A stretch of DNA of 54,828 bases from a virus: IMG/VR virus record IMGVR_UViG_3300022208_000004, positions 1 to 54,828 of that record, one strand, 5' to 3'. The notes beneath the pieces were generated by a model, which worked only from the letters and a program-made list of their open reading frames with translations, did no database searches and was not told where the DNA came from. This document shows positions 5,615-15,081 of the stretch, piece after piece; position 1 is the first letter of the stretch; every line of letters starts with the position of its first letter. A program made the position numbers and the translations under genes.

Positions 5615-8137
5615 TTAAACTGTAAAATCACTAAATGAAGTGCCCATTTGAGTTATTGTCATTGTGCTTTTCAAGAATTCAGCGGTTCTTGTTGGCTTGA
5701 CATAAATTCCTACAAGCATTGCATTAGCTTCAACAATATCTTGAGTATTGTTAGTCTCATTTACCACTATCATATAGTCTATTAAACCACGTCTTGCTTT
5801 TATTCTACTATATAGTGGATTCAACACACCAGACACCCTACTTCTACTGATTGCATCATTTATAGTGAAGACAAATGGCTTTAATGATTTATCTGTAATT
5901 TCAGCCAATTCAATTAGATTTTCTCTAACGTTGATTCTATCCAAGGCAGAAGCTTCCGCTGTGTGTGTCTTTTGACCATAAATAATAGCATTACCCTCAC
6001 CAGGAATAGGTATGATTGGGTTAATAGCATTGTAATACAAAGAATCCCTACCAGTCTTATTTGGAATGAAAGCAAGCTTTATGGCATTTTTAATAACGCC
6101 TCTTGATGTTCCCGCAGTAGCTTCCCAAGGAGTTTTATTTACTGCAAACAACCCCGCAACGTCACCTGATATATTTACCCAACGGTTTACATCATTATAC
6201 TTATCGTACTGATATTTCATGTTTCCATAAACAGCAACAAAGGTTGAAGATGCATTGAACAGCATTGAATTGAATTTTGCTTCCACTGTTCCAAAGGCTT
6301 CTACAAGATATTTAACAGCTTCGGCGCTTGTCTTTCCTACCAATGCGGAATTATCATATGGTGCAACTATTCCCAAGCAATCTTTTCTTGTACCTGCTAT
6401 AGTAGCCCCTTTATTGTAATCCAACTCATGTGGAAGTATATATCTTACCTTTATTTCATCCTTGTTTTCAAATGAAAGATAGGCTTCAATAATATCAGCT
6501 TGAGTATATCCATTTGGATTATAGGCACCATTAGAAGTAGAATCCACTACTGGCCAATAGGCTTTTAATTCTGTTGTGGTTCCTATTCTTGGATAGATTG
6601 TTGTATATGTTGAATGGTGAATTATAGGTAAAGAGCCACCACCAGTATTAACTTCTTTGGTACTATTCTGGTTTACCTTTACATACACATATTTTGAATT
6701 ACTAGCTAAAACAGATTCGGCAAAATTGATTCTGTTGAAAGTATCTCTACCAGTTTCTTTCCAGGAAAGAACCCATTTTTCCAATACAGTGAATGAACCA
6801 TCATCTTCTTTTTTGAATACTATCATAGCAAATTCACCTAAAGAAAATTTAGGCATGAATTCAAAGAAAGAAGAAAATTTAGATTGCATATCTGTTGAGA
6901 CACTTTCATTCCAAGCAGCCTCATTTGAGCAAACACCGATTCCTATTTCAGCATCTACTGATGTAACATATTTTCTGTAGACAGCCAATCTTGAATCTGT
7001 AATATTTCCTCTTAATGATGTTGTAGAGACAGTAAAATTATCCAAGGTTTGATTTGGAGTAGCATTTACTGAAGTAACGGCAATTCCTGAAACGGAACCA
7101 TTTATTAATTCACTTGCGGCAAAAGCACCAGTTACATCTGATAATGTAAGGGTATTACTTGATATATTAGCAATCTTTCCACTTGCACCAGACGTTTGAC
7201 CAGTTATAGTTTCCCCTAGAACAACCAAAGCACCACCACCAGTTATTAGGTTTATCTTTCCAGTCAAATCCCAACCAGTCAAGGCAGTAGCATTCAATAA
7301 GTTGATTGTTGTTCCATCACCACCTATTTTCAAGGTTTCAATACCATTTACAATCAATATACCAGAATCAGCACCGCTAGAAGGCAATCCTTTTTGAGAA
7401 ACCTGATTGCCTCTCAATTTGGTTCTTAATTTCATTGTATATTGATCTGTTGCAGCATGAGTATATTCAACAATAGTTTTAGATATTGAAGCGATATTCA
7501 TGTTTGTAATAGTTGTTTCTGCAACATCACTATTATACAAAGTGCCTTGTTCAACTGCCTGATAGGTAGACAAAGTAGTTTTTGTTGAATTTGCTAGAGT
7601 TACGTTGTTTGAAGTTGGTGTTCCTGTAGCAGAACTTGTGCCACCCGTGACAATGTTAATAGAACTAAATGTTCCAGATACTTTTATTAGTCCAAGGTAA
7701 GTATTGGTTCCTGAAGTTCTTTTAGAGAAAATTATAGCAGTTGCGTTTGTTACTGCTTGAGAAACAGTTTCGCCAATAACAAAGGTTCCTGTCAAGGATG
7801 CTGTAACAAATTCCAATTCTCTTACAACCTGCCCGCCAGTTAGAACTAAACCAGTATTCTTTGTAGCCTTGGCTTGGTCAATAGGTCTTACGTTGTAAAC
7901 ATCGGAAACATATTGTAAAGCATTCCAAGCCTGATACCAGTCATGGTAGTTATATTTTGTAGGCTTGTTGAAATAGGATTGTAATATACTTTCGCCTTCT
8001 GTCTTAGTCACTTGAAAAGCGGGACCGTTGTCGGCTCTCAAAATATTAGCAATTGATTTACCTGCGATTTGGGCAGGTTTCTGTGAAACGTTTCTTTCAA
8101 ACAGTTCATGACCTGGACTTAGGCTAAACTCTGTCAT
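5615..8137 (-). CDS. gp18: Tail sheath protein (gp18-like), enlarged
   Basis: An 840-residue sheath protein (T4 gp18 is 659). The N-terminus LSPGHELFERNVSQ plus GPAFQVTK and LQYVSDVYNVRPID match the gp18 pattern. The C-terminal 150 residues (NVRENLIELAEI, NNTQDIVEANA, GIYVKPTRTAEFL) are the conserved sheath core. Extra length lies after residue 100. There, two segments carry GETVSQAVTNAT and GETITGQTSGASG, a beta-module type that often decorates phage surface proteins. Ribosome site GGAG is well spaced, with a CATAAATA late box 46 bases upstream of the ATG. It polymerises around the tube and contracts to drive penetration. Confidence 0.92.
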   Translation of the reverse strand: MTEFSLSPGHELFERNVSQKPAQIAGKSIANILRADNGPAFQVTKTEGESILQSYFNKPTKYNYHDWYQAWNALQYVSDVYNVRPIDQAKATKNTGLVLTGGQVVRELEFVTASLTGTFVIGETVSQAVTNATAIIFSKRTSGTNTYLGLIKVSGTFSSINIVTGGTSSATGTPTSNNVTLANSTKTTLSTYQAVEQGTLYNSDVAETTITNMNIASISKTIVEYTHAATDQYTMKLRTKLRGNQVSQKGLPSSGADSGILIVNGIETLKIGGDGTTINLLNATALTGWDLTGKINLITGGGALVVLGETITGQTSGASGKIANISSNTLTLSDVTGAFAASELINGSVSGIAVTSVNATPNQTLDNFTVSTTSLRGNITDSRLAVYRKYVTSVDAEIGIGVCSNEAAWNESVSTDMQSKFSSFFEFMPKFSLGEFAMIVFKKEDDGSFTVLEKWVLSWKETGRDTFNRINFAESVLASNSKYVYVKVNQNSTKEVNTGGGSLPIIHHSTYTTIYPRIGTTTELKAYWPVVDSTSNGAYNPNGYTQADIIEAYLSFENKDEIKVRYILPHELDYNKGATIAGTRKDCLGIVAPYDNSALVGKTSAEAVKYLVEAFGTVEAKFNSMLFNASSTFVAVYGNMKYQYDKYNDVNRWVNISGDVAGLFAVNKTPWEATAGTSRGVIKNAIKLAFIPNKTGRDSLYYNAINPIIPIPGEGNAIIYGQKTHTAEASALDRINVRENLIELAEITDKSLKPFVFTINDAISRSRVSGVLNPLYSRIKARRGLIDYMIVVNETNNTQDIVEANAMLVGIYVKPTRTAEFLKSTMTITQMGTSFSDFTV

Positions 8138-8198: not shown

Positions 8199-10259
8199 CT
8201 AAAAAATAGAACTTGATGATTCGTCTTCTATGGAAGAATAAAATTCTGGAACATCATCATCTTCAATATCACTCAAACTTGTATTATTTATTATTCCCCT
8301 AACATTATTTCTCATTTCTTCAGGTGTTTTGTCTTTCATCTTTGCAATTTTCTTGAGTGCTTCCATTATTCCTAGCCCCTTTTCTGTTTTGTCTAAAATA
8401 GTTTCATTTAATTCTGCAATCTTTTCTCCAAATAATGGCCTATCTTGAAGAAACAATAATGAATGTATCAAAGCCGCTACAGCATCATCCTTATAACCTT
8501 GTTCTGCCTCATAACTGTTTTTCTTTTTAGTGTAAGTTGATAATTGCGTAATTGTAGTGGCATCACATATAACCAAACCATATCTTTCAATAAGCATCTT
8601 TAACAACAAAGCGCCTTTCTTTTTATTCTTCTTTGTTGTCCTGAATCCAAACACATTAGGCTTTTGAGAATACACATTTTCATACTCAAATGTATAGTTA
8701 AGTGTATCAGCCATTTCCTGCCCAACCGAATCATTAGTTTCAATGAAAATATAGGCATTATTATAATATCTACCTATACTGTTAAGCAATTCTGGTATTT
8801 CCATGTAGTGAACACCAGTTCCTATAACAACAGTTGCAATCTGTTTGTAAGGAATATCAGTTATATCAATAACCTGTATGGCAACAGAGTCACCAGCGGA
8901 TTCTGTAGTTATTTTAGCAGGGTCAACCCCTACAATATAATCATGCCCAATAATCCTATCATGGTAAATACTTATGTGACCTTCATAGTAATCGTTTATC
9001 TTTGTTATGTCTTTATACAAGGTCACATAACTTTCAGGCAGAGGGTCTAATACTGTCATATCTTCCATGTATTCACCATCAACCAATGAGTTTGAGGATG
9101 AAAGAAATTTACAGTTAAATTCTTGTTGAAATTTTCTTCGGCCAAGGTTTCCTATTGTCTGTTTCTCAAATACACCATCAATTATGTGATAGTTGCCATA
9201 TCTAAATTCAACTTCTTTAAAGCTATGTTTTTTTCCTTGGTGAACAATTAACATTGATTTGTAATCAGTTTCCGTGAAACCTGCGTGTAATTCTTTCATG
9301 GAATAGGCTTTTATTTCATTGTTATATTCAACATCAATAACATCATCATCATTCATGGAAACAAATTTATCATCTATGACATTTGCATAACCAGGGACTT
9401 CTTTCCAAAGTATTTCACAAGGAACAAATTCATTTTTCTTATCCAGTGCTTGCTTCCACATTTTGTAAAAATAATTCATACCTAATGGAGTTGAAACCAT
9501 TATTACTCTAGAAGATTTTGACGATGAAATAGTAGGGTAAACAGATTCCCAAAAAGGGTCCCAAATAGTATCGGACAAGTGAGCCGCTTCGTCAATAATT
9601 AAAAGATTTATCGTCTCACCACGAATAGAGTCTGAGGCCGTTGTTCCTGCGAAAACCTTGCATCCATTTTCTAGTTGAATTTCTGTCTTATTCCAGGTTA
9701 TAGCGCCTTGTTGTAACCAGAACGGAAGATTGGTATAAGCCAATTTTATTCTATGTAAGATTTCTTTAGCCTGTTTTTCTTTGTTGGCCAGAATGACAAC
9801 ATTCTTATATTCATTGAAAAGAACATAATGCAATACATAAAGCGCAAATGAAGTTGAATTGTGTGAAAGAATATCATTGGTATAATATAGGGAATCGTCA
9901 ACATCCAATAGGTCAAACATATGTTCTTTATTATCATTTCTCTTGACCTTGATTAAGGTTTCAATACCATCCTTTGTTTTGATTCTTGTTTTATTTTCAA
10001 TACAGTCTTTTGTGAATATCTCATTGTCGTTTTCATCAATGAGAATATGATTATCAGCACAAAATAGTTTCTTTCCTTTATCTGTTTCGATTTCCCAAAC
10101 ATCAAATTTTACAGTTTTGCCTATACCCTCAAATGGTTTCCATCCCTGATTTGTCCAGACTTTATAATCAGAAACCTTTACTTCATGTATGAATTTATCA
10201 TCTTCTGAGTAAGCCCAATTGATTAGTTTTCGTTTTAACTCTGTAAAAATTCCAAACAT
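8199..10259 (-). CDS. gp17: Terminase large subunit, C-gene: intein C-part plus ATPase/nuclease
   Basis: A 686-residue protein. Residues 1-134 are the C-part of a split intein: a block-B-like CADNHILI near 67-74, and a block F/G end with YYTNDILSHN and His133-Asn134. From Ser135 (STSFALYVLHYVLF) it continues T4 gp17 exactly after the Walker-A Gly-Lys. Walker B is LLIIDEAAH (219-227), followed by motif III STPLGMNYFY (256-265). The nuclease domain has GVDPAK (444-449), FIETND (505-510) and a C-terminal DDAVAAL (591-597). About 75 extra residues occur between the ATPase and nuclease domains (about 291-365). After trans-splicing with the product of 11380-11934 it should form the DNA-packaging motor and headful nuclease. 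Neither half alone has a complete ATPase site. Confidence 0.93.
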   Translation of the reverse strand: MFGIFTELKRKLINWAYSEDDKFIHEVKVSDYKVWTNQGWKPFEGIGKTVKFDVWEIETDKGKKLFCADNHILIDENDNEIFTKDCIENKTRIKTKDGIETLIKVKRNDNKEHMFDLLDVDDSLYYTNDILSHNSTSFALYVLHYVLFNEYKNVVILANKEKQAKEILHRIKLAYTNLPFWLQQGAITWNKTEIQLENGCKVFAGTTASDSIRGETINLLIIDEAAHLSDTIWDPFWESVYPTISSSKSSRVIMVSTPLGMNYFYKMWKQALDKKNEFVPCEILWKEVPGYANVIDDKFVSMNDDDVIDVEYNNEIKAYSMKELHAGFTETDYKSMLIVHQGKKHSFKEVEFRYGNYHIIDGVFEKQTIGNLGRRKFQQEFNCKFLSSSNSLVDGEYMEDMTVLDPLPESYVTLYKDITKINDYYEGHISIYHDRIIGHDYIVGVDPAKITTESAGDSVAIQVIDITDIPYKQIATVVIGTGVHYMEIPELLNSIGRYYNNAYIFIETNDSVGQEMADTLNYTFEYENVYSQKPNVFGFRTTKKNKKKGALLLKMLIERYGLVICDATTITQLSTYTKKKNSYEAEQGYKDDAVAALIHSLLFLQDRPLFGEKIAELNETILDKTEKGLGIMEALKKIAKMKDKTPEEMRNNVRGIINNTSLSDIEDDDVPEFYSSIEDESSSSIF
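9858..10259 (-). other. Split intein, C-terminal part (134 residues)
   Basis: Residues 1-134 of the terminase C-gene. It carries the block-B-like histidine (CADNH), an LDVDDSLYYTND block-F-like segment, and the terminal SHN with penultimate His and Asn for cyclisation. The +1 extein residue is Ser, an allowed splice nucleophile. Because block B lies in this half, the break is upstream of block B. That differs from DnaE-type split inteins, whose N-parts contain blocks A and B. Confidence 0.9.
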
Positions 10260-11422
10260 TCTCTTATTGTTTTATCCTTATCATTGTTATAATCTTTTTC
10301 TTGAATGTGTAATATTTCACATTTCAATTCATCTATTATTTGTTGTTCCCTCAACATATCTCTTTCTTGATTTCCTCTTTTTTCTCCATGCCAGTAATCA
10401 CCATCAAACTCAATTACCTTATTTGTTTTTTCATCGTAGAAATCAAGGAATCTTAATGAATATGATGATTGAATATGAACAACATATTCATTGTTCCAAC
10501 CAGATTTATCTTCTGTTTCATCTTTTAATGTGGCAAAATGAATACCTGTTTTATCTTCCAATGAGTTATAAACAGACCAAAATAATTCTTGTGAAATCTT
10601 AGAGAATGGTTGCCTTCCTTCTATTTTTTTTCTATTGATTTCCAATTTTTCTTCTGGTGTTTTGGCATCCAATGTTTTCTGCCATTTTTCTTGTCTTTTT
10701 AACCATATCTCTTTTCCTTTTTTCTCTCCATACTTATCAATACAAAGTTCAAGAGAAAAACGTCTTTGTAATTCACCTATTTTCTGCTTTGCCTTATCTA
10801 TTGAGTATCCTTGTTTTAACCAATGTTTAAGAGTCAATTTATTGTTTCCATTGTTCCTGTTGGAATCACCTATCTTCTTATAGATGCTTTGTAATTGTTT
10901 ATTCAATTCATCATCAGTCAAATTTTCATAACCCTTGAAGTTTTTACTGAATGGTGACAGATTTCCGCCATGATTAAATCCAGGATTGTTTTCTCCTTTT
11001 ATTTTTTCTGAGGCATAGTTTAAGTATGATTCAGAAAACGCTCTCACACTATACTTTTCTTCATATTCTTGAACTGTGATATTATGTTTGTATAGTAGGT
11101 GTTGCGTTAATGACCGCGCCTTAATTCCACATATCTTACATTCGACTATGCCTACTTCATGTTTGTATTTTTGGTCAGCCTGTTTCCGTTGTCTTGTGGT
11201 TTCTAGACACTGTGTTGAACAGTATTTTGCTTTCATGTCTCTGACTGAAATATCCTTGTGACAATTAAGACATTCTCTTTTTATTGTTTTTGGGTCAACC
11301 CATTTTTCATGTTTTATTAGGTAATCTATCTTGTTTAGATTATGTTCTTTTTTAGTGTGGTGATAGAAGTTATATTTGTTTATGGTTTGATTACATTCCT
11401 TACAAACTTTTTCAGATTCCAT
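10235..11422 (-). CDS. Vsr-like (EDxHD) homing endonuclease between the terminase halves
   Basis: A 395-residue protein. The N-terminus has zinc-finger-like pairs: CKECNQ with HH..H, CLNCHK with YCSTQC, and CKICG followed by an HLLYKHN histidine pair. A NUMOD3-like GENNPGFNHGG follows near residues 145-155. The C-terminal catalytic region reads RFLDFYDEKTNKVIEFDG, then DYWHG and ERDMLREQQI, matching the Vsr-fold EDxHD homing-endonuclease pattern. The gene lies between the two terminase pieces and overlaps both (43 bases into the N-gene, 25 into the C-gene). It has its own AAGGAGA ribosome site and an upstream TATAAATA box. Expected role: cutting unoccupied terminase alleles so the split-intein locus spreads. 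Published fractured genes carry endonucleases of this type. Confidence 0.85.
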   Translation of the reverse strand: MESEKVCKECNQTINKYNFYHHTKKEHNLNKIDYLIKHEKWVDPKTIKRECLNCHKDISVRDMKAKYCSTQCLETTRQRKQADQKYKHEVGIVECKICGIKARSLTQHLLYKHNITVQEYEEKYSVRAFSESYLNYASEKIKGENNPGFNHGGNLSPFSKNFKGYENLTDDELNKQLQSIYKKIGDSNRNNGNNKLTLKHWLKQGYSIDKAKQKIGELQRRFSLELCIDKYGEKKGKEIWLKRQEKWQKTLDAKTPEEKLEINRKKIEGRQPFSKISQELFWSVYNSLEDKTGIHFATLKDETEDKSGWNNEYVVHIQSSYSLRFLDFYDEKTNKVIEFDGDYWHGEKRGNQERDMLREQQIIDELKCEILHIQEKDYNNDKDKTIRECLEFLQS

Positions 11423-11934
11423 ATTATAAGTCTCCTTAGATTGTTCATACTCTTATTTATAATATAGAATGGTTTTTTAGTATGCTTCTGGTCAATTTGG
11501 TAAACCCTGTTTAATAAATCATAGAAATCACCAATTTTTATATCCATAATTTCTCCTTCATAAGTCTTTATTTTAATTACAGAATCACCCAAACAGCACT
11601 TTCCACACTGTCTACTTGCTACGTTAATAGTAAAACGATTGTTTAAAAAATTGTTTAATAGTCTTTCTTGATATCGTCTTAGATTAATGGTGATAAGTCC
11701 CTTATCAGCATGGACTATTTTATAATACCGTTTTGCAAAGTAGTATATGTCTTGTTGGCATTTATACAATTCCTGAATATGAACATCGGAGAAAGGTAGA
11801 ATGGCATTCTTACCCTTTAGTTTTGTGTTGCCTAGATAGTGAAATTTCTGACCATAAACATCTCTTGTAAAATCGGGAATATCTAGAGGATTTTCTGGTA
11901 TTACAGTTATAGCATTCGTTTCTATTACTTCCAT
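11380..11934 (-). CDS. gp17: Terminase large subunit, N-gene: N-extein plus intein N-part
   Basis: A 184-residue protein. Residues 1-112 match the T4 gp17 N-terminus: LRRYQERLLNNFLNNRFTIN is the adenine-binding/Q region, then ASRQCGK ends the Walker-A loop at Gly-Lys. Residues 113-184 are the intein N-part, opening with CCLGDSVIKI, a good block A (Cys1, Gly4-Asp5). The segment after about residue 147 is not clearly intein-like. Its DNA also contains the late promoter and ribosome site of the endonuclease gene. The start overlaps the preceding gene by 10 bases. This is not simply a truncated gene: the C-gene supplies the complementary intein end and resumes the extein at the next expected residue. 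Confidence 0.92.
   Translation of the reverse strand: MEVIETNAITVIPENPLDIPDFTRDVYGQKFHYLGNTKLKGKNAILPFSDVHIQELYKCQQDIYYFAKRYYKIVHADKGLITINLRRYQERLLNNFLNNRFTINVASRQCGKCCLGDSVIKIKTYEGEIMDIKIGDFYDLLNRVYQIDQKHTKKPFYIINKSMNNLRRLIIWNLKKFVRNVIKP
11383..11598 (-). other. Split intein, N-terminal part (72 residues)
   Basis: Begins with Cys113 of the terminase N-gene immediately after Gly111-Lys112. Block A is CCLGDS; the next strands are EGEIMDIKIGDFYDLL. There is no block B in this half. Only the first 30-35 residues look like intein fold, resembling the very short N-part reported for the atypically split AceL-TerL intein. The remaining residues may be read-through into the DNA used by the nested endonuclease gene. 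Confidence 0.85.
11454..11461 (-). promoter_or_regulatory. T4-type late promoter box (TATAAATA) for the endonuclease gene
   Basis: An exact TATAAATA on the minus strand, 32 bases before the endonuclease ATG and followed by AAGGAGA at ribosome-site distance. It lies inside the coding sequence of the intein N-part, so the nested gene appears to have its own late expression signal. Confidence 0.65.
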
Positions 11935-12443
11935 TTGTTCTCTGATAGTGTTTTTGGAAAGAATCCAGATTCGGGCAATTCGACAATTATCTCGTAATAT
12001 CCATTTGCAAAAGCAACCACCCCAATTATCTTTTCCATAGGAACAATATAGGCAGCCAACTTTTTTTCTTCATCTGAATATCTTTTAGCCCATTTTTTAT
12101 CCGCAAAAAGAACAGTCAAAGAACCCTTTGGAACCTTAATATTATCGGATTGTGCCCGATGTAGAATAACTTTGTTCCCATATTCTTTTTTCATGAAGTG
12201 TAGGGTCTTGGAGTATTCTTTTTTAACATCATCTAAGGTGAAGTCATTCTTATTTATCTTCCTATCTAATGCTCTAGGAATCCCAACAATAAGCCCCCTA
12301 ACATCAGAATTTATGGCAGAACTTATGCTATTAGGCAAGGATTTGGTTTCCTGACTAGCAATTTTCAATAATTCATCGTTTATGACAAACGTCTTTATGT
12401 TCTCATTAAGAAATTGTTTGAATGTCTTAATATTACTTATCAT
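11925..12443 (-). CDS. Leader-bearing protein, possible ADP-ribosyltransferase-like fold
   Basis: 172 residues from the ATG at 12443, chosen because GGGGA lies 7 bases upstream; a GTG at 12464 would be upstream of that site. The N-terminus MISNIKTFKQFLNE resembles the T4 capsid-targeting leader and offers an LxE cut site (LNE, residues 12-14). The rest contains VILHRAQS (Arg96), LTVLFADKKWAKRY, and a C-terminal GYYEIIVELP (Glu151). That arrangement is reminiscent of the R-S-E layout of arginine-type ADP-ribosyltransferases, but the middle Ser-Thr-Ser motif is poor. It overlaps the terminase N-gene start. Likely head-packaged; the enzyme call is tentative. Confidence 0.5.
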   Translation of the reverse strand: MISNIKTFKQFLNENIKTFVINDELLKIASQETKSLPNSISSAINSDVRGLIVGIPRALDRKINKNDFTLDDVKKEYSKTLHFMKKEYGNKVILHRAQSDNIKVPKGSLTVLFADKKWAKRYSDEEKKLAAYIVPMEKIIGVVAFANGYYEIIVELPESGFFPKTLSENKWK

Positions 12444-13422
12444 ATGAATATCCCCACTTCTCACCTAATGCATAGAACATATCTGCAAATGTGCGCCATT
12501 TATTTTTCCTCATTATTCTAATAATTTCATCCATGTAGTCTCTTAGTTTGCCTTCACTTTTCTTGTTGTTATGAAACAGCGTTTCTATTCCAGAACTTTT
12601 GACCGCCCGATTTATAAAATAGTCCATATGTTCTTTATCTGAACTACTTTTAATTTCATTAAAATTTCTGAGACTTCCAGCATTATAAAGATATGATGAT
12701 TCTTTTGAGGTCAATTCTTCAGTGTTTTTCTTTTTCAACAATGAAAGTATGCTTTGAAAAGCATCAGAATCATAAGATGAATTATAGTCGCGTCCACTAT
12801 TTGCTTTTGTTTTTGTATAGGTTTTAAGGAAATTTATTACATCGTCTAATTCTGTTTTGGCTTTAGATTTATTTTGCAAAATCCAGTCATGGTTGTCACT
12901 GTATATCCAATATGGAATACCACTCTTTTTTAGTTCAATAAATGTGCTTAACAATTCTGTTCTATTCTTTGCGAACTTCTCAAATTCTTTCATTCTTTCG
13001 ATGTTGAAAAGAATGTGTATTTCTTCAATATACTTATTGAATTGTTCAATAGTAGGTTTAGGTGAATAAATTCTATCTTCTGCTTCATCATCCTTTTGTC
13101 TGAATGCGATAGTTGTATTTCTACCCCAATAATCTACAGACTTTGCAGAATAACGTTGATTCAGTTTTTCACCGTTTAATTTCATCACAGCCGAAGCCAT
13201 ATCTTCACCAAAATGATAGCCGCCGTATTTCAGTCTGGTAGTAGATAGGTAGTAATAATTTTTCTTTTTACCCCTAAACCTTTCTTCTGAACTCTGACCT
13301 ATATCAGTAGTGAGTTTAATGGAATTCGTTTTTAGAATTTTACCTAGAGAAATGAGTGAGGTCGCATGGTAAACCATACTAGAAGCCATTTCATTTAGAT
13401 ATTGTTTAAAGGTCAGTATCAT
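12433..13422 (-). CDS. Leader-bearing ADP-ribosyltransferase-like protein (Alt analogue?)
   Basis: 329 residues. Leader MILTFKQYLNE (LNE at 9-11) is followed by VYHATS (17-22), a spacer, then YYYLSTTR (56-63), a VMKLNGEKL strand (79-87), VDYWG and EAEDRI (113-118). His-x-Thr, Ser-Thr-Thr and a downstream acidic pair are the arrangement I associate with phage ADP-ribosyltransferase or KptA-like folds. The last 150 residues are helical with no recognised domain. T4 Alt is a precedent: a capsid-targeted ADP-ribosyltransferase injected with the DNA. Leader DNA at 13401-13422 is identical to that of the next gene upstream. Fold assignment is inference from motifs. Confidence 0.6.
   Translation of the reverse strand: MILTFKQYLNEMASSMVYHATSLISLGKILKTNSIKLTTDIGQSSEERFRGKKKNYYYLSTTRLKYGGYHFGEDMASAVMKLNGEKLNQRYSAKSVDYWGRNTTIAFRQKDDEAEDRIYSPKPTIEQFNKYIEEIHILFNIERMKEFEKFAKNRTELLSTFIELKKSGIPYWIYSDNHDWILQNKSKAKTELDDVINFLKTYTKTKANSGRDYNSSYDSDAFQSILSLLKKKNTEELTSKESSYLYNAGSLRNFNEIKSSSDKEHMDYFINRAVKSSGIETLFHNNKKSEGKLRDYMDEIIRIMRKNKWRTFADMFYALGEKWGYSYDK
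13401..13422 (-). repeat. Leader-coding repeat A, copy 1 (22 identical bases)
   Basis: Identical to 14203-14224. Encodes the start of MILTFKQ in the ADP-ribosyltransferase-like gene. The bodies of the two genes are unrelated. Confidence 0.9.
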
Positions 13423-13426
13423 AAAT

Positions 13427-14224
13427 TTATATTTCCTTTAATAGTTCTTTTTTAAATTCTTCTACTTTTAATTGTATGTAACCATAGAATCGTTTGAGAA
13501 ATTTTTTCTGAACATCTCCATTCCATGATCTAAATATAGGACTTTCTTTTACAAATATAGTGAAAAAATTATAGGTTTTATTTTCATCGGCCTTGCCTAA
13601 CCAATCTTTTCCAGCCTTCATTATAAAAGCTAATTTGGCTTCTGGTTTTAATTTATTTAGTATATTATCTATTTTAAATATAATCTGTTGAGCATAAGCA
13701 TTATACTCTTTATCTGAAGATATGTAATCGGTTATATCACCAGATTTTGCTAGTTCTAGTGTTCCAGATTTAAAAAAGTCTTCTTTCCATCTTTTAGAGT
13801 CTAGGAAATGAATGAATTCATGTAGGAATGTTTCTTTATTTTTTTCAAATAGTTTTTTCATTTCTTTCATATTTTCTATACTCACCACATAATTCTCTGG
13901 TAAGCAGTATAGTCTTATTACTCTACCATTTTTCAATGGTTCTATTAAACCTTTTATGGTTATATTCTCATTTGATACAACTTTTTGTAAAGTAACGGCA
14001 ATATTATCATCCTTAAACATAGCCAATCCCCTTTTAACATTATTGAAAGGTATAGCTATACCAACGGCTTTTCCGTCACTCTTGACAAGAGTAGAGACTT
14101 CCAGGAGACTTTTTTTACTGTTAAATAGACCATTCAATCTATCAAAGACCTTTAAAGCAATATCTCTAGCTACTTTATCTGATTGAGCATCTTCAACCAA
14201 GAATTGTTTAAAGGTCAGTATCAT
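13427..14224 (-). CDS. Leader-bearing HExxH metallopeptidase-like protein
   Basis: 265 residues. Leader MILTFKQFLVE (LVE at 9-11) precedes a long mixed region and then ETFLHEFIHFLDSKRW, with HEFIH at 135-139. HExxH is the zinc-binding and catalytic signature of gluzincin/metzincin-type metallopeptidases. A possible third ligand is Glu in SDKEYNAYAQQ about 30 residues later, as in gluzincins. No signal peptide or membrane segment is seen. If the leader targets it to the head, it could be a protease delivered to the host cell or one acting inside the head. A single HExxH can occur by chance, but its hydrophobic flanks and downstream Glu support a real site. Confidence 0.6.
   Translation of the reverse strand: MILTFKQFLVEDAQSDKVARDIALKVFDRLNGLFNSKKSLLEVSTLVKSDGKAVGIAIPFNNVKRGLAMFKDDNIAVTLQKVVSNENITIKGLIEPLKNGRVIRLYCLPENYVVSIENMKEMKKLFEKNKETFLHEFIHFLDSKRWKEDFFKSGTLELAKSGDITDYISSDKEYNAYAQQIIFKIDNILNKLKPEAKLAFIMKAGKDWLGKADENKTYNFFTIFVKESPIFRSWNGDVQKKFLKRFYGYIQLKVEEFKKELLKEI
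14203..14224 (-). repeat. Leader-coding repeat A, copy 2
   Basis: Identical to 13401-13422. Encodes the start of MILTFKQ in the metallopeptidase-like gene. Confidence 0.9.
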
Positions 14225-14577: not shown

Positions 14578-15081
14578 TTATCCCCTTGCTTTTTTTAATA
14601 GGTCCGCTGTTGTTCCTTGAATAATATTCACTGTATTAGCCTTACCAATGTTCATTCCAGGTTGATCTGGTAGATTGTTTCTTTCTCTCTCTACCTTGAC
14701 AACTCTTTCATACATAACCATTGTCGTTTCAATAGTCTTAGTAATGTTTGCCATTAAATTAGATATTCCTTCTATTCGTGACCCTGACATAACATCAGCA
14801 TCACCAGTAGAAAGACTATTGAATAAATCCCTGCCCCGTCTAACAAGATTCTGTAAGTTTCTTCTAGCCAATACAAAATCCTTCTTCAAATCAATCAAGT
14901 CAAATAATTCAATCTTACCAGAATCTTTGTTCATCACCTGTAAATCTTTTTCGGATATTTCCTCTACTTCATAATCATCTGTAGTCAACACAATATCCTT
15001 AGTTTCATTATCTACTCTAGTAACTTTTTCTTCTATAATATTGAATTCTTCACTCAATCTATTGAAAGTTTTATCATCCAT
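14578..15081 (-). CDS. gp16: Terminase small subunit (gp16-like)
   Basis: 167 residues (T4 gp16 is 164). The central part has the gp16 helical hairpin: DFVLARRNLQNLVRRGRDLF, then ISNLMANITKTIETTMVMYE. The C-terminus ends MNIGKANTVNIIQGTTADLL, parallel to the T4 ending in which a MNIQNATVFMGSP-like segment precedes TELMDEIGD. It should form the oligomeric ring that regulates terminase and recognises DNA for packaging. Unlike T4, where 16 and 17 are adjacent, five accessory genes lie between this gene and the terminase large subunit. An exact TATAAATA sits only two bases before the ATG. Confidence 0.8.
   Translation of the reverse strand: MDDKTFNRLSEEFNIIEEKVTRVDNETKDIVLTTDDYEVEEISEKDLQVMNKDSGKIELFDLIDLKKDFVLARRNLQNLVRRGRDLFNSLSTGDADVMSGSRIEGISNLMANITKTIETTMVMYERVVKVERERNNLPDQPGMNIGKANTVNIIQGTTADLLKKARG

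What the first reader, a model, noticed from the sequence alone, without database searches (positions are those of the whole stretch)
8199..11934. Fractured terminase: split intein with a nested Vsr-like homing endonuclease gene
Seen: the N-gene ends its gp17-like part at ASRQCGK and continues with intein block A (CCLGDS). The C-gene starts with intein sequence, ends it with SHN, and resumes with STSFALYVL, the exact next residues of gp17. The 395-residue gene between them has zinc-finger-like motifs, a NUMOD3-like element and the EFDGDYWHG catalytic pattern of EDxHD endonucleases. Known: fractured genes with split inteins and such endonucleases were described from metagenomes, and a split intein in TerL (AceL-TerL) is known. 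Inferred: a functional TerL needs trans-splicing, and the nested gene makes the locus mobile.
Basis: partly seen in the sequence, partly recalled or inferred. Interest (0 to 1): 0.9.

Follow-up and report, generated by a model that had tools for sequence, protein, structure and literature searches.

The report
Phage packaging-motor gene fractured by intein
A phage's DNA-packaging motor gene is broken in two inside its ATP-binding loop, with self-splicing intein halves on the broken ends and a DNA-cutting 'homing' gene between them; relatives show that this kind of cassette moves between motor genes, and in one lineage the cutter gene is written in a second reading frame on top of an unbroken intein.

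Summary
Confirmed. On the minus strand a T4 gp17-like terminase (TerL) is encoded in two ORFs. The N-gene (11934-11380) ends at SRQCGK and continues into intein-N; the C-gene (10259-8199) starts with intein-C, ends it with SHN and resumes TerL. A zinc-finger/EDxHD endonuclease gene (11422-10235) lies between. The joined TerL aligns to gp17 without a gap across Walker A (E 3e-50); the joined intein aligns end to end with contiguous TerL inteins. Folds: IntC nearest Cat and VidaL; nuclease like I-Bth0305I and Vsr. Best reading: a fractured terL whose product must be spliced in trans.

One pair shares a 1266/1266-nt identical cassette in TerLs otherwise about 60-70% identical, a homing footprint. 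Phages CP21 and F379 are a near-isogenic contiguous/fractured pair. In one clade the endonuclease is overprinted on an unbroken intein (0 stops, 24-33 expected). AceL-TerL lies at another site. Splicing, cleavage and homing were not tested for the window itself.

The parts
11599..11934 (-). TerL N-extein, residues 1-112, ending ..VASRQCGK (first part of Walker A)
   Evidence: PHROG TerL hit 1.7e-23; joined alignment to gp17
11380..11598 (-). Intein-N ORF part: Cys1 at 11598-11596; conserved core about 33 aa (CCLGDSVIKI...IGDFYDLLN), then a non-conserved tail of about 39 aa to the stop at 11380
   Evidence: joined intein alignment
11432..11437 (-). AAGGAG Shine-Dalgarno-like sequence 9 nt before the endonuclease ATG (11422)
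   Evidence: read
10235..11422 (-). Free-standing homing endonuclease gene (395 aa) nested between the intein halves, overlapping the N-gene and the C-gene
11036..11158 (-). Ros-like C2H2 zinc finger region (residues about 89-129) of the endonuclease; two more Cys/His motifs lie upstream
   Evidence: 2jsp hit 2.2e-5 with the family profile; Z 3.9, 32% identity
10625..10990 (-). Middle module of the endonuclease (residues 145-266), shared with the T5orf172-like endonuclease in TerL of Campylobacter phage F379; presumed DNA-binding
   Evidence: tblastn 35.8%, 2e-8; F379 domain by Pfam, below cut-off
10238..10609 (-). EDxHD/Vsr-fold catalytic domain (residues 272-395) with invariant E312, D327, EFDGDYWH, R358, E375
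9858..10259 (-). Intein-C (residues 1-134 of the C-gene): block B-like CADNH, block F MFDLLDVDD, terminal SHN
   Evidence: CatC hit; AF2 model pLDDT 87 with HINT matches 6dsl, 6vgv
8199..9857 (-). TerL C-extein (residues 135-686): Ser+1, rest of ATPase domain, RNase H-like nuclease
   Evidence: Terminase_6N 1.2e-12, Terminase_6C 4.3e-11
5615..8137 (-). Tail sheath gene directly downstream (T4 gp17-gp18 order), placing this as the normal terL position
   Evidence: PHROG 4.7e-55
14578..15081 (-). Probable terminase small subunit upstream
   Evidence: PHROG 2.4e-4

Best explanation
This is a fractured terL. Shown by sequence: TerL is encoded as two polypeptides broken between Lys and Ser of the Walker A loop, each carrying part of an atypically split (short IntN) intein, with a zinc-finger EDxHD homing endonuclease gene nested at the split point. 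Inferred: the two proteins are translated from overlapping ORFs, the intein parts associate and splice in trans, joining CGK to STS and creating the only functional P-loop. Because neither part has an intact P-loop, packaging ATPase activity depends on splicing. The endonuclease recognises the P-loop DNA (GGNAAR|WSN) of intein-less alleles and cuts it; repair copies IntN-endonuclease-IntC in as one unit. Splicing makes the insertion tolerable to the phage, and placement in an essential conserved codon pair makes it hard to lose.
For: ORFs and junctions. Joined TerL is ungapped to gp17 across the junction. IntC matches Cat, VidaL and gp41-1 by sequence and by fold. Joined intein is full length against contiguous inteins at the same site, with the splice-junction residues present (C1, HN, Ser+1). 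Endonuclease fold and invariant active-site motif. Same architecture in 53 of 80 endonuclease-related contigs. Isolate pair: F379 (fractured) and CP21 (contiguous) are 99.6% and 96.9% identical on either side of a 1159-nt endonuclease that replaces a 47-nt linker. Homing footprint: L041 and L042 cassettes 1266/1266 nt identical, TerL flanks about 60-70%; all 35 distinct insertion sites fit GGNAAR|WSN. Endonucleases at P-loops of gp46-, UvsW-, AAA- and DnaB-like genes branch among those of TerL. No known intron RNA.
Against: No experiment. The window has no close relative, so neither an empty allele nor a recent transfer is seen for this copy, and its insert has unremarkable G+C. Curated intein models barely ring (Pfam Intein_splicing 0.064 in the C-gene; none in the record), so support rests on the Cat/VidaL-type family. 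The record may be a fragment, so a second intact TerL is not excluded. Endonuclease cleavage specificity is unknown.
Confidence: 0.9

Rival explanations
1. The intein halves have decayed: the split is a dead or dying gene, and another intact TerL packages the genome.
For: The record is only 54.8 kb with no completeness estimate, so another copy could lie outside.
Against: C1, block F Asp, HN and Ser+1 are all intact, as are the TerL motifs; terL lies in its normal place before the sheath gene; the same split is conserved across deeply diverged phages.
Confidence: 0.05
2. Ribosomal frameshifting fuses N-gene, endonuclease and C-gene into one precursor, so the intein is really contiguous.
For: The ORFs overlap by 42 and 24 nt; in the L041/L052 clade the intein frame really is continuous past the endonuclease.
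Against: N-to-endonuclease frame offsets of 0, 1 and 2 all occur, many relatives have a gap of 28-147 nt instead of an overlap, and the window endonuclease has its own AAGGAG and ATG.
Confidence: 0.04
3. An RNA intron, not protein splicing, joins the two TerL parts.
For: Phage terL genes can be interrupted by introns (ICP1, PMC10448857); IBB_35 terL was described as having an intein and an intron (PMC3322345); F379's endonuclease is annotated 'intron-associated'.
Against: No credible Rfam match in the region; coding sequence on both sides of the endonuclease is conserved as intein protein and runs up to the exact extein junctions.
Confidence: 0.02
4. The split is kept because it regulates packaging: trans-splicing delays or gates TerL activity until both parts accumulate.
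For: The break disables the P-loop, so splicing could act as a switch (inference).
Against: 78 of 80 TerL relatives found without reference to inteins have an uninterrupted RQxGK[S/T], so no such control is generally needed; the patchy distribution and the homing footprint fit a selfish element.
Confidence: 0.05

Closest known systems
Fractured genes with split inteins and EDxHD endonucleases (Dassa et al. 2009; original paper not held, known from citing papers and my own knowledge)
   Same: Host gene split by a split intein with a free-standing endonuclease ORF between the parts. The same endonuclease search also recovers helicase genes split at QGNR|S with a long IntN and short IntC, the gp41-type layout.
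   Different: Here the host is terL at Walker A and the split is atypical (short IntN); endonucleases of the gp41-type loci form a separate clade (99/98).
AceL-TerL, GOS-TerL and Cat atypically split inteins
   Same: Short IntN with the split after the first N-terminal motifs; IntC most similar to Cat by sequence and fold; host gene is TerL.
   Different: The Cat-like intein found here in L165 lies at another TerL site, FE|CEFLGS, and carries a GIY-YIG endonuclease; the window's lies at Walker A GK|S.
Contiguous TerL Walker A inteins of Ackermannviridae (Magnus, Kuja, VAP7) and TerL1-a of mycobacteriophages (PMC5050341)
   Same: Same Lys|Ser/Thr P-loop insertion site; the Ackermannviridae inteins are homologous.
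   Different: One continuous ORF, no EDxHD gene nested at the N-proximal site; homology with TerL1-a was not tested.
Campylobacter phages F379 (fractured) and CP21 (contiguous)
   Same: F379_177/178/179 is the same three-gene layout with a related middle module in the endonuclease.
   Different: Insertion three residues upstream (RQ|SSKS); T5orf172-like catalytic end (weak Pfam match) instead of EDxHD; the record calls it 'intron-associated'.
ShiLan out-of-frame HNH insertion (PMC11855218)
   Same: An endonuclease overprinted in another frame of an uninterrupted host ORF, as in the L041/L052 relatives.
   Different: ShiLan has no intein splicing domains; L041/L052 have both intein parts and an EDxHD endonuclease.

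Membership tests
Fractured gene with split intein | One host protein encoded in two ORFs, each ending or starting with an intein part, precise extein continuity | tested here: met
Fractured gene with split intein | Free-standing endonuclease ORF between the parts | tested here: met
Fractured gene with split intein | Protein trans-splicing activity | not testable with these tools
   needs co-expression or lysate mass spectrometry
Class 1 intein | Cys1, terminal His-Asn, Cys/Ser/Thr at +1 | tested here: met
   C113, H133-N134, Ser135
Class 1 intein | HINT fold | tested here: met
   IntC model pLDDT 87, Foldseek 6dsl 9.5e-7 and many inteins; the joined IntN+IntC was aligned, not folded
Class 1 intein | Block B TxxH (typical, not universal) | tested here: inconclusive
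   ADNH here: His present, Ala in place of Thr; the same Ala is invariant in the 17 aligned relatives, and CatC has Ser there, so it is a trait of this group
Atypically split intein | Split close to the N-terminus, native IntN 15-37 aa (PMC13014065) | tested here: met
   31-49 aa in most relatives; the window's IntN ORF part is 72 aa, a core of about 33 aa plus a tail, and the split falls N-proximal
AceL-TerL allele | Same insertion site in TerL | tested here: not met
   Walker A GK|S versus FE|CEFLGS in the Cat/AceL-like locus L165; AceL's own site is recalled, not fetched
EDxHD (I-Bth0305I-type) homing endonuclease | Vsr-like catalytic fold with conserved acidic and His residues | tested here: met
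   3r3p Z 10.2, Vsr 1cw0 Z 9.5; EFDGDYWH invariant
EDxHD (I-Bth0305I-type) homing endonuclease | Cuts the intein-less allele and drives homing | not testable with these tools
   indirect only: identical cassette in divergent TerLs of relatives
NUMOD3 | Pfam NUMOD3 match | tested here: inconclusive
   no Pfam hit at E up to 1, though the motif region looks similar by eye

The most novel reading that the evidence does not exclude
This fractured family includes a clade (L041-L044, L046, L047, L052) in which the endonuclease gene is overprinted, in the +1 frame, on an unbroken TerL-intein ORF. Selection keeps that frame free of the roughly 30 stop codons expected, so that the same DNA makes a cis-splicing TerL precursor and, from an internal start inside the intein-N codons, the homing endonuclease. 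The N-proximal 'atypical' split point is then a second endonuclease insertion site of inteins, and fracturing and overprinting are two solutions to the same invasion.
Probability: 0.75. Interest if true: 0.8.

Novelty: new variant of a known kind. Interest (0 to 1): 0.62.

Why it matters
It puts an obligatory protein trans-splicing step inside the P-loop of an essential viral motor. The comparison set makes an open question testable: how contiguous inteins become split. F379 and CP21 are isolates that are near-isogenic here and differ by the endonuclease gene, L041/L042 record the whole cassette moving between divergent genes, and the overprinted clade shows a way to keep the intein in one piece. 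The endonuclease family's spread over P-loops of unrelated ATPases suggests that it targets the conserved GK|S/T codons. The inteins are also candidate short-IntN tools.

Tried and rejected
RNA intron: no credible Rfam match. Programmed frameshift as the general mechanism: frame offsets vary and gaps occur. AceL-TerL identity: different site. Further members of the overprinted clade: a scan with the L052 endonuclease found only itself. Endonuclease in bacterial genomes: the EFDGDYW pattern gave no relative in genome contigs. The missing first and last TerL pieces in L004's contig were not found. Dassa 2009 is not in the library, so that comparison rests on citing papers and my own knowledge. 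NCBIfam gave nothing. Promoter/terminator scan at chance level. A fold of the joined intein was not attempted because the tool refuses altered sequences; alignment was used instead.

Full report
WHAT IS THERE. On the minus strand three ORFs lie head to tail: 11934-11380 (184 aa), 11422-10235 (395 aa) and 10259-8199 (686 aa). They overlap by 42 and 24 nt. The middle gene has its own AAGGAG nine bases before its ATG. The outer two are the parts of one gp17-like TerL. Joined at CGK|STS, the ATPase part aligns to solved gp17 at E 3e-50 with no gap across the junction. The gene sits where T4 has gp17, before the sheath and tube genes, with a probable small subunit upstream. No other TerL is in the 54.8-kb record, which may be a fragment.

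THE INTEIN. The N-gene continues after Lys112 with CCLGDS...IGDFYD; the C-gene begins with 134 residues that end YYTNDILSHN before Ser+1. IntC matches the consensus atypical intein CatC at 3.8e-9; its family profile also matches gp41-1 and VidaL. Its AF2 model (pLDDT 87) has Cat and VidaL as best structural matches, then many other inteins. The joined intein aligns from Cys1 to Asn with contiguous inteins at the same TerL site in Kuja, VAP7 and Magnus, and with CP21's intein three residues away. The split falls in the variable linker after the first N-terminal motifs. The break lies between Lys and Ser of Walker A, so neither part has a P-loop. Mycobacteriophage TerL1-a inteins use the corresponding position in contiguous form (PMC5050341). 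The AceL/Cat-like site is different: L165 has it at FE|CEFLGS with a GIY-YIG gene. L151 has an apparently unrelated contiguous intein, LAGLIDADG-like by eye, at the same Walker A site.

THE ENDONUCLEASE. Zinc-finger-like motifs (Ros-like) precede a middle module and a C-terminal domain whose model superposes on I-Bth0305I (Z 10.2) and Vsr (Z 9.5). EFDGDYWH, E312, D327, R358 and E375 are invariant in 23 relatives. The middle module is shared with the endonuclease in F379's terL, which has a different, T5orf172-like catalytic end. This suggests modular exchange around a common targeting part (inference).

DISTRIBUTION. Of 80 viral contigs with a related endonuclease, 53 have it in terL (counted), nearly all at GK|S/T. 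Five have it at P-loops of other ATPases: gp46-like, UvsW-like, an AAA protein and two DnaB-like proteins. The remainder are in a helicase gene at QGNR|S with long IntN and short IntC, the gp41 layout. The sampled endonucleases of that layout form one clade (99/98); those at other P-loops are scattered around and inside the TerL group. All 35 distinct junctions fit GGNAAR|WSN at the DNA level. Conversely, among 80 TerL relatives found without reference to inteins, 78 have an uninterrupted RQxGK[S/T], so the element is optional and patchy.

MOBILITY AND HOW GENES FRACTURE. L041 and L042 have an identical 1266-nt intein-endonuclease cassette while flanking TerL DNA is 63% (N) and about 60-70% (C) identical. 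Identity starts at the Lys codon and runs about 17 nt past the 3' junction, as expected for homing with short co-conversion. A weaker case is L036/L049 (86% versus 76-79%). In Campylobacter phages, CP21 has a contiguous intein whose 47-nt linker is replaced in F379 by a 1159-nt endonuclease segment; flanking intein and TerL DNA is 99.6% and 96.9% identical. Direction (gain or loss of the gene) is not established. The literature places endonuclease domains of inteins at the canonical split position (PMC13014065, PMC6801210); here the gene lies at the N-proximal, atypical position.

OVERPRINTED RELATIVES. In L041-L044, L046, L047 and L052 the TerL-intein frame has no stop through the endonuclease, which lies in the +1 frame. 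Synonymous resampling predicts 24-33 stops and never gave zero in 3000 trials per locus. Every fractured relative tested has 10-69 stops per alternate frame, about as expected. Within the clade, 24 of 31 differences between L041 and L046 fall at endonuclease codon position 3, so the endonuclease protein is constrained and the other frame mainly kept open. These form one clade (99/85). ShiLan (PMC11855218) is a precedent for out-of-frame endonucleases, but without an intein. That the long precursor splices in cis is inference. Members are few and partly near-identical, so this rests on two diverged lineages (59% DNA identity).

MECHANISM. Shown: anatomy, intact splice-junction residues, folds, recurrence, and a transfer footprint in relatives. 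Inferred: trans-splicing, cleavage of the empty allele, and gene conversion. The window copy is divergent (highest endonuclease core identity 47%), with normal G+C, so nothing shows recent movement of this copy.

VERDICT. The window is a well-supported variant of fractured genes: terL Walker A host, atypical split, EDxHD gene at that split. The comparison set is more surprising than the window itself.

Noticed in passing
L041-L044, L046, L047, L052: The endonuclease is overprinted in the +1 frame of an unbroken TerL-intein ORF: 0 stops where 24-33 are expected by synonymous resampling.
   Followed up: yes
L041:679-1944 and L042:5910-7175: Intein-endonuclease cassette 1266/1266 nt identical between TerL genes with about 60-70% identical flanks: a recent transfer.
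   Followed up: yes
L004:5278-8672 (IMGVR_UViG_3300011947_000002): TerL pieces in scrambled order: a Walker A split (IntC|TTVV, then SVN|C IntN) lies downstream of a piece with another IntC (LIRN|CLYIDEIAF) and a third IntN (EMN|CVSGDT); large structural-looking genes, not endonucleases, lie between. First and last pieces not found.
   Followed up: partly
L016:1591-5774, L025, L026, L027, L057/L058, L061: TerL appears fractured twice or more, by the Walker A split intein and by a further split (near SxN|C before Walker B in L026/L027), several with a further endonuclease-like ORF. L026/L027 ORFs break at expected Gln positions, suggesting a recoded stop codon.
   Followed up: partly
L096:4212-6497 (Vibrio phage Va1): In an isolate, an EDxHD-like endonuclease is fused in frame to the N-terminus of IntC at the FE|CNFLGS TerL site: a two-gene form of the fractured gene.
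   Followed up: partly
L097:3992-6710 (Caulobacter phage Cr30): A relative of the endonuclease stands free next to an intein-less TerL whose P-loop is SRQSAKST (GCAAAA instead of GGNAAR): possibly a site immune to its own endonuclease.
   Followed up: no
L073:640-2807 and L090:77-2298: Split TerL intein with only about 60-70 aa of endonuclease left (620-nt insert): likely decay stage of the homing cycle.
   Followed up: no
window 11925-14224: Three ORFs between terS and terL; those at 12433-13422 and 13427-14224 begin MILTFKQ[YF]L, like T4 capsid-targeting leaders (from memory); 13427-14224 has HEFIH (metalloprotease-like) and 12433-13422 has a YHATS motif. No PHROG match; possibly internal head proteins.
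   Followed up: no
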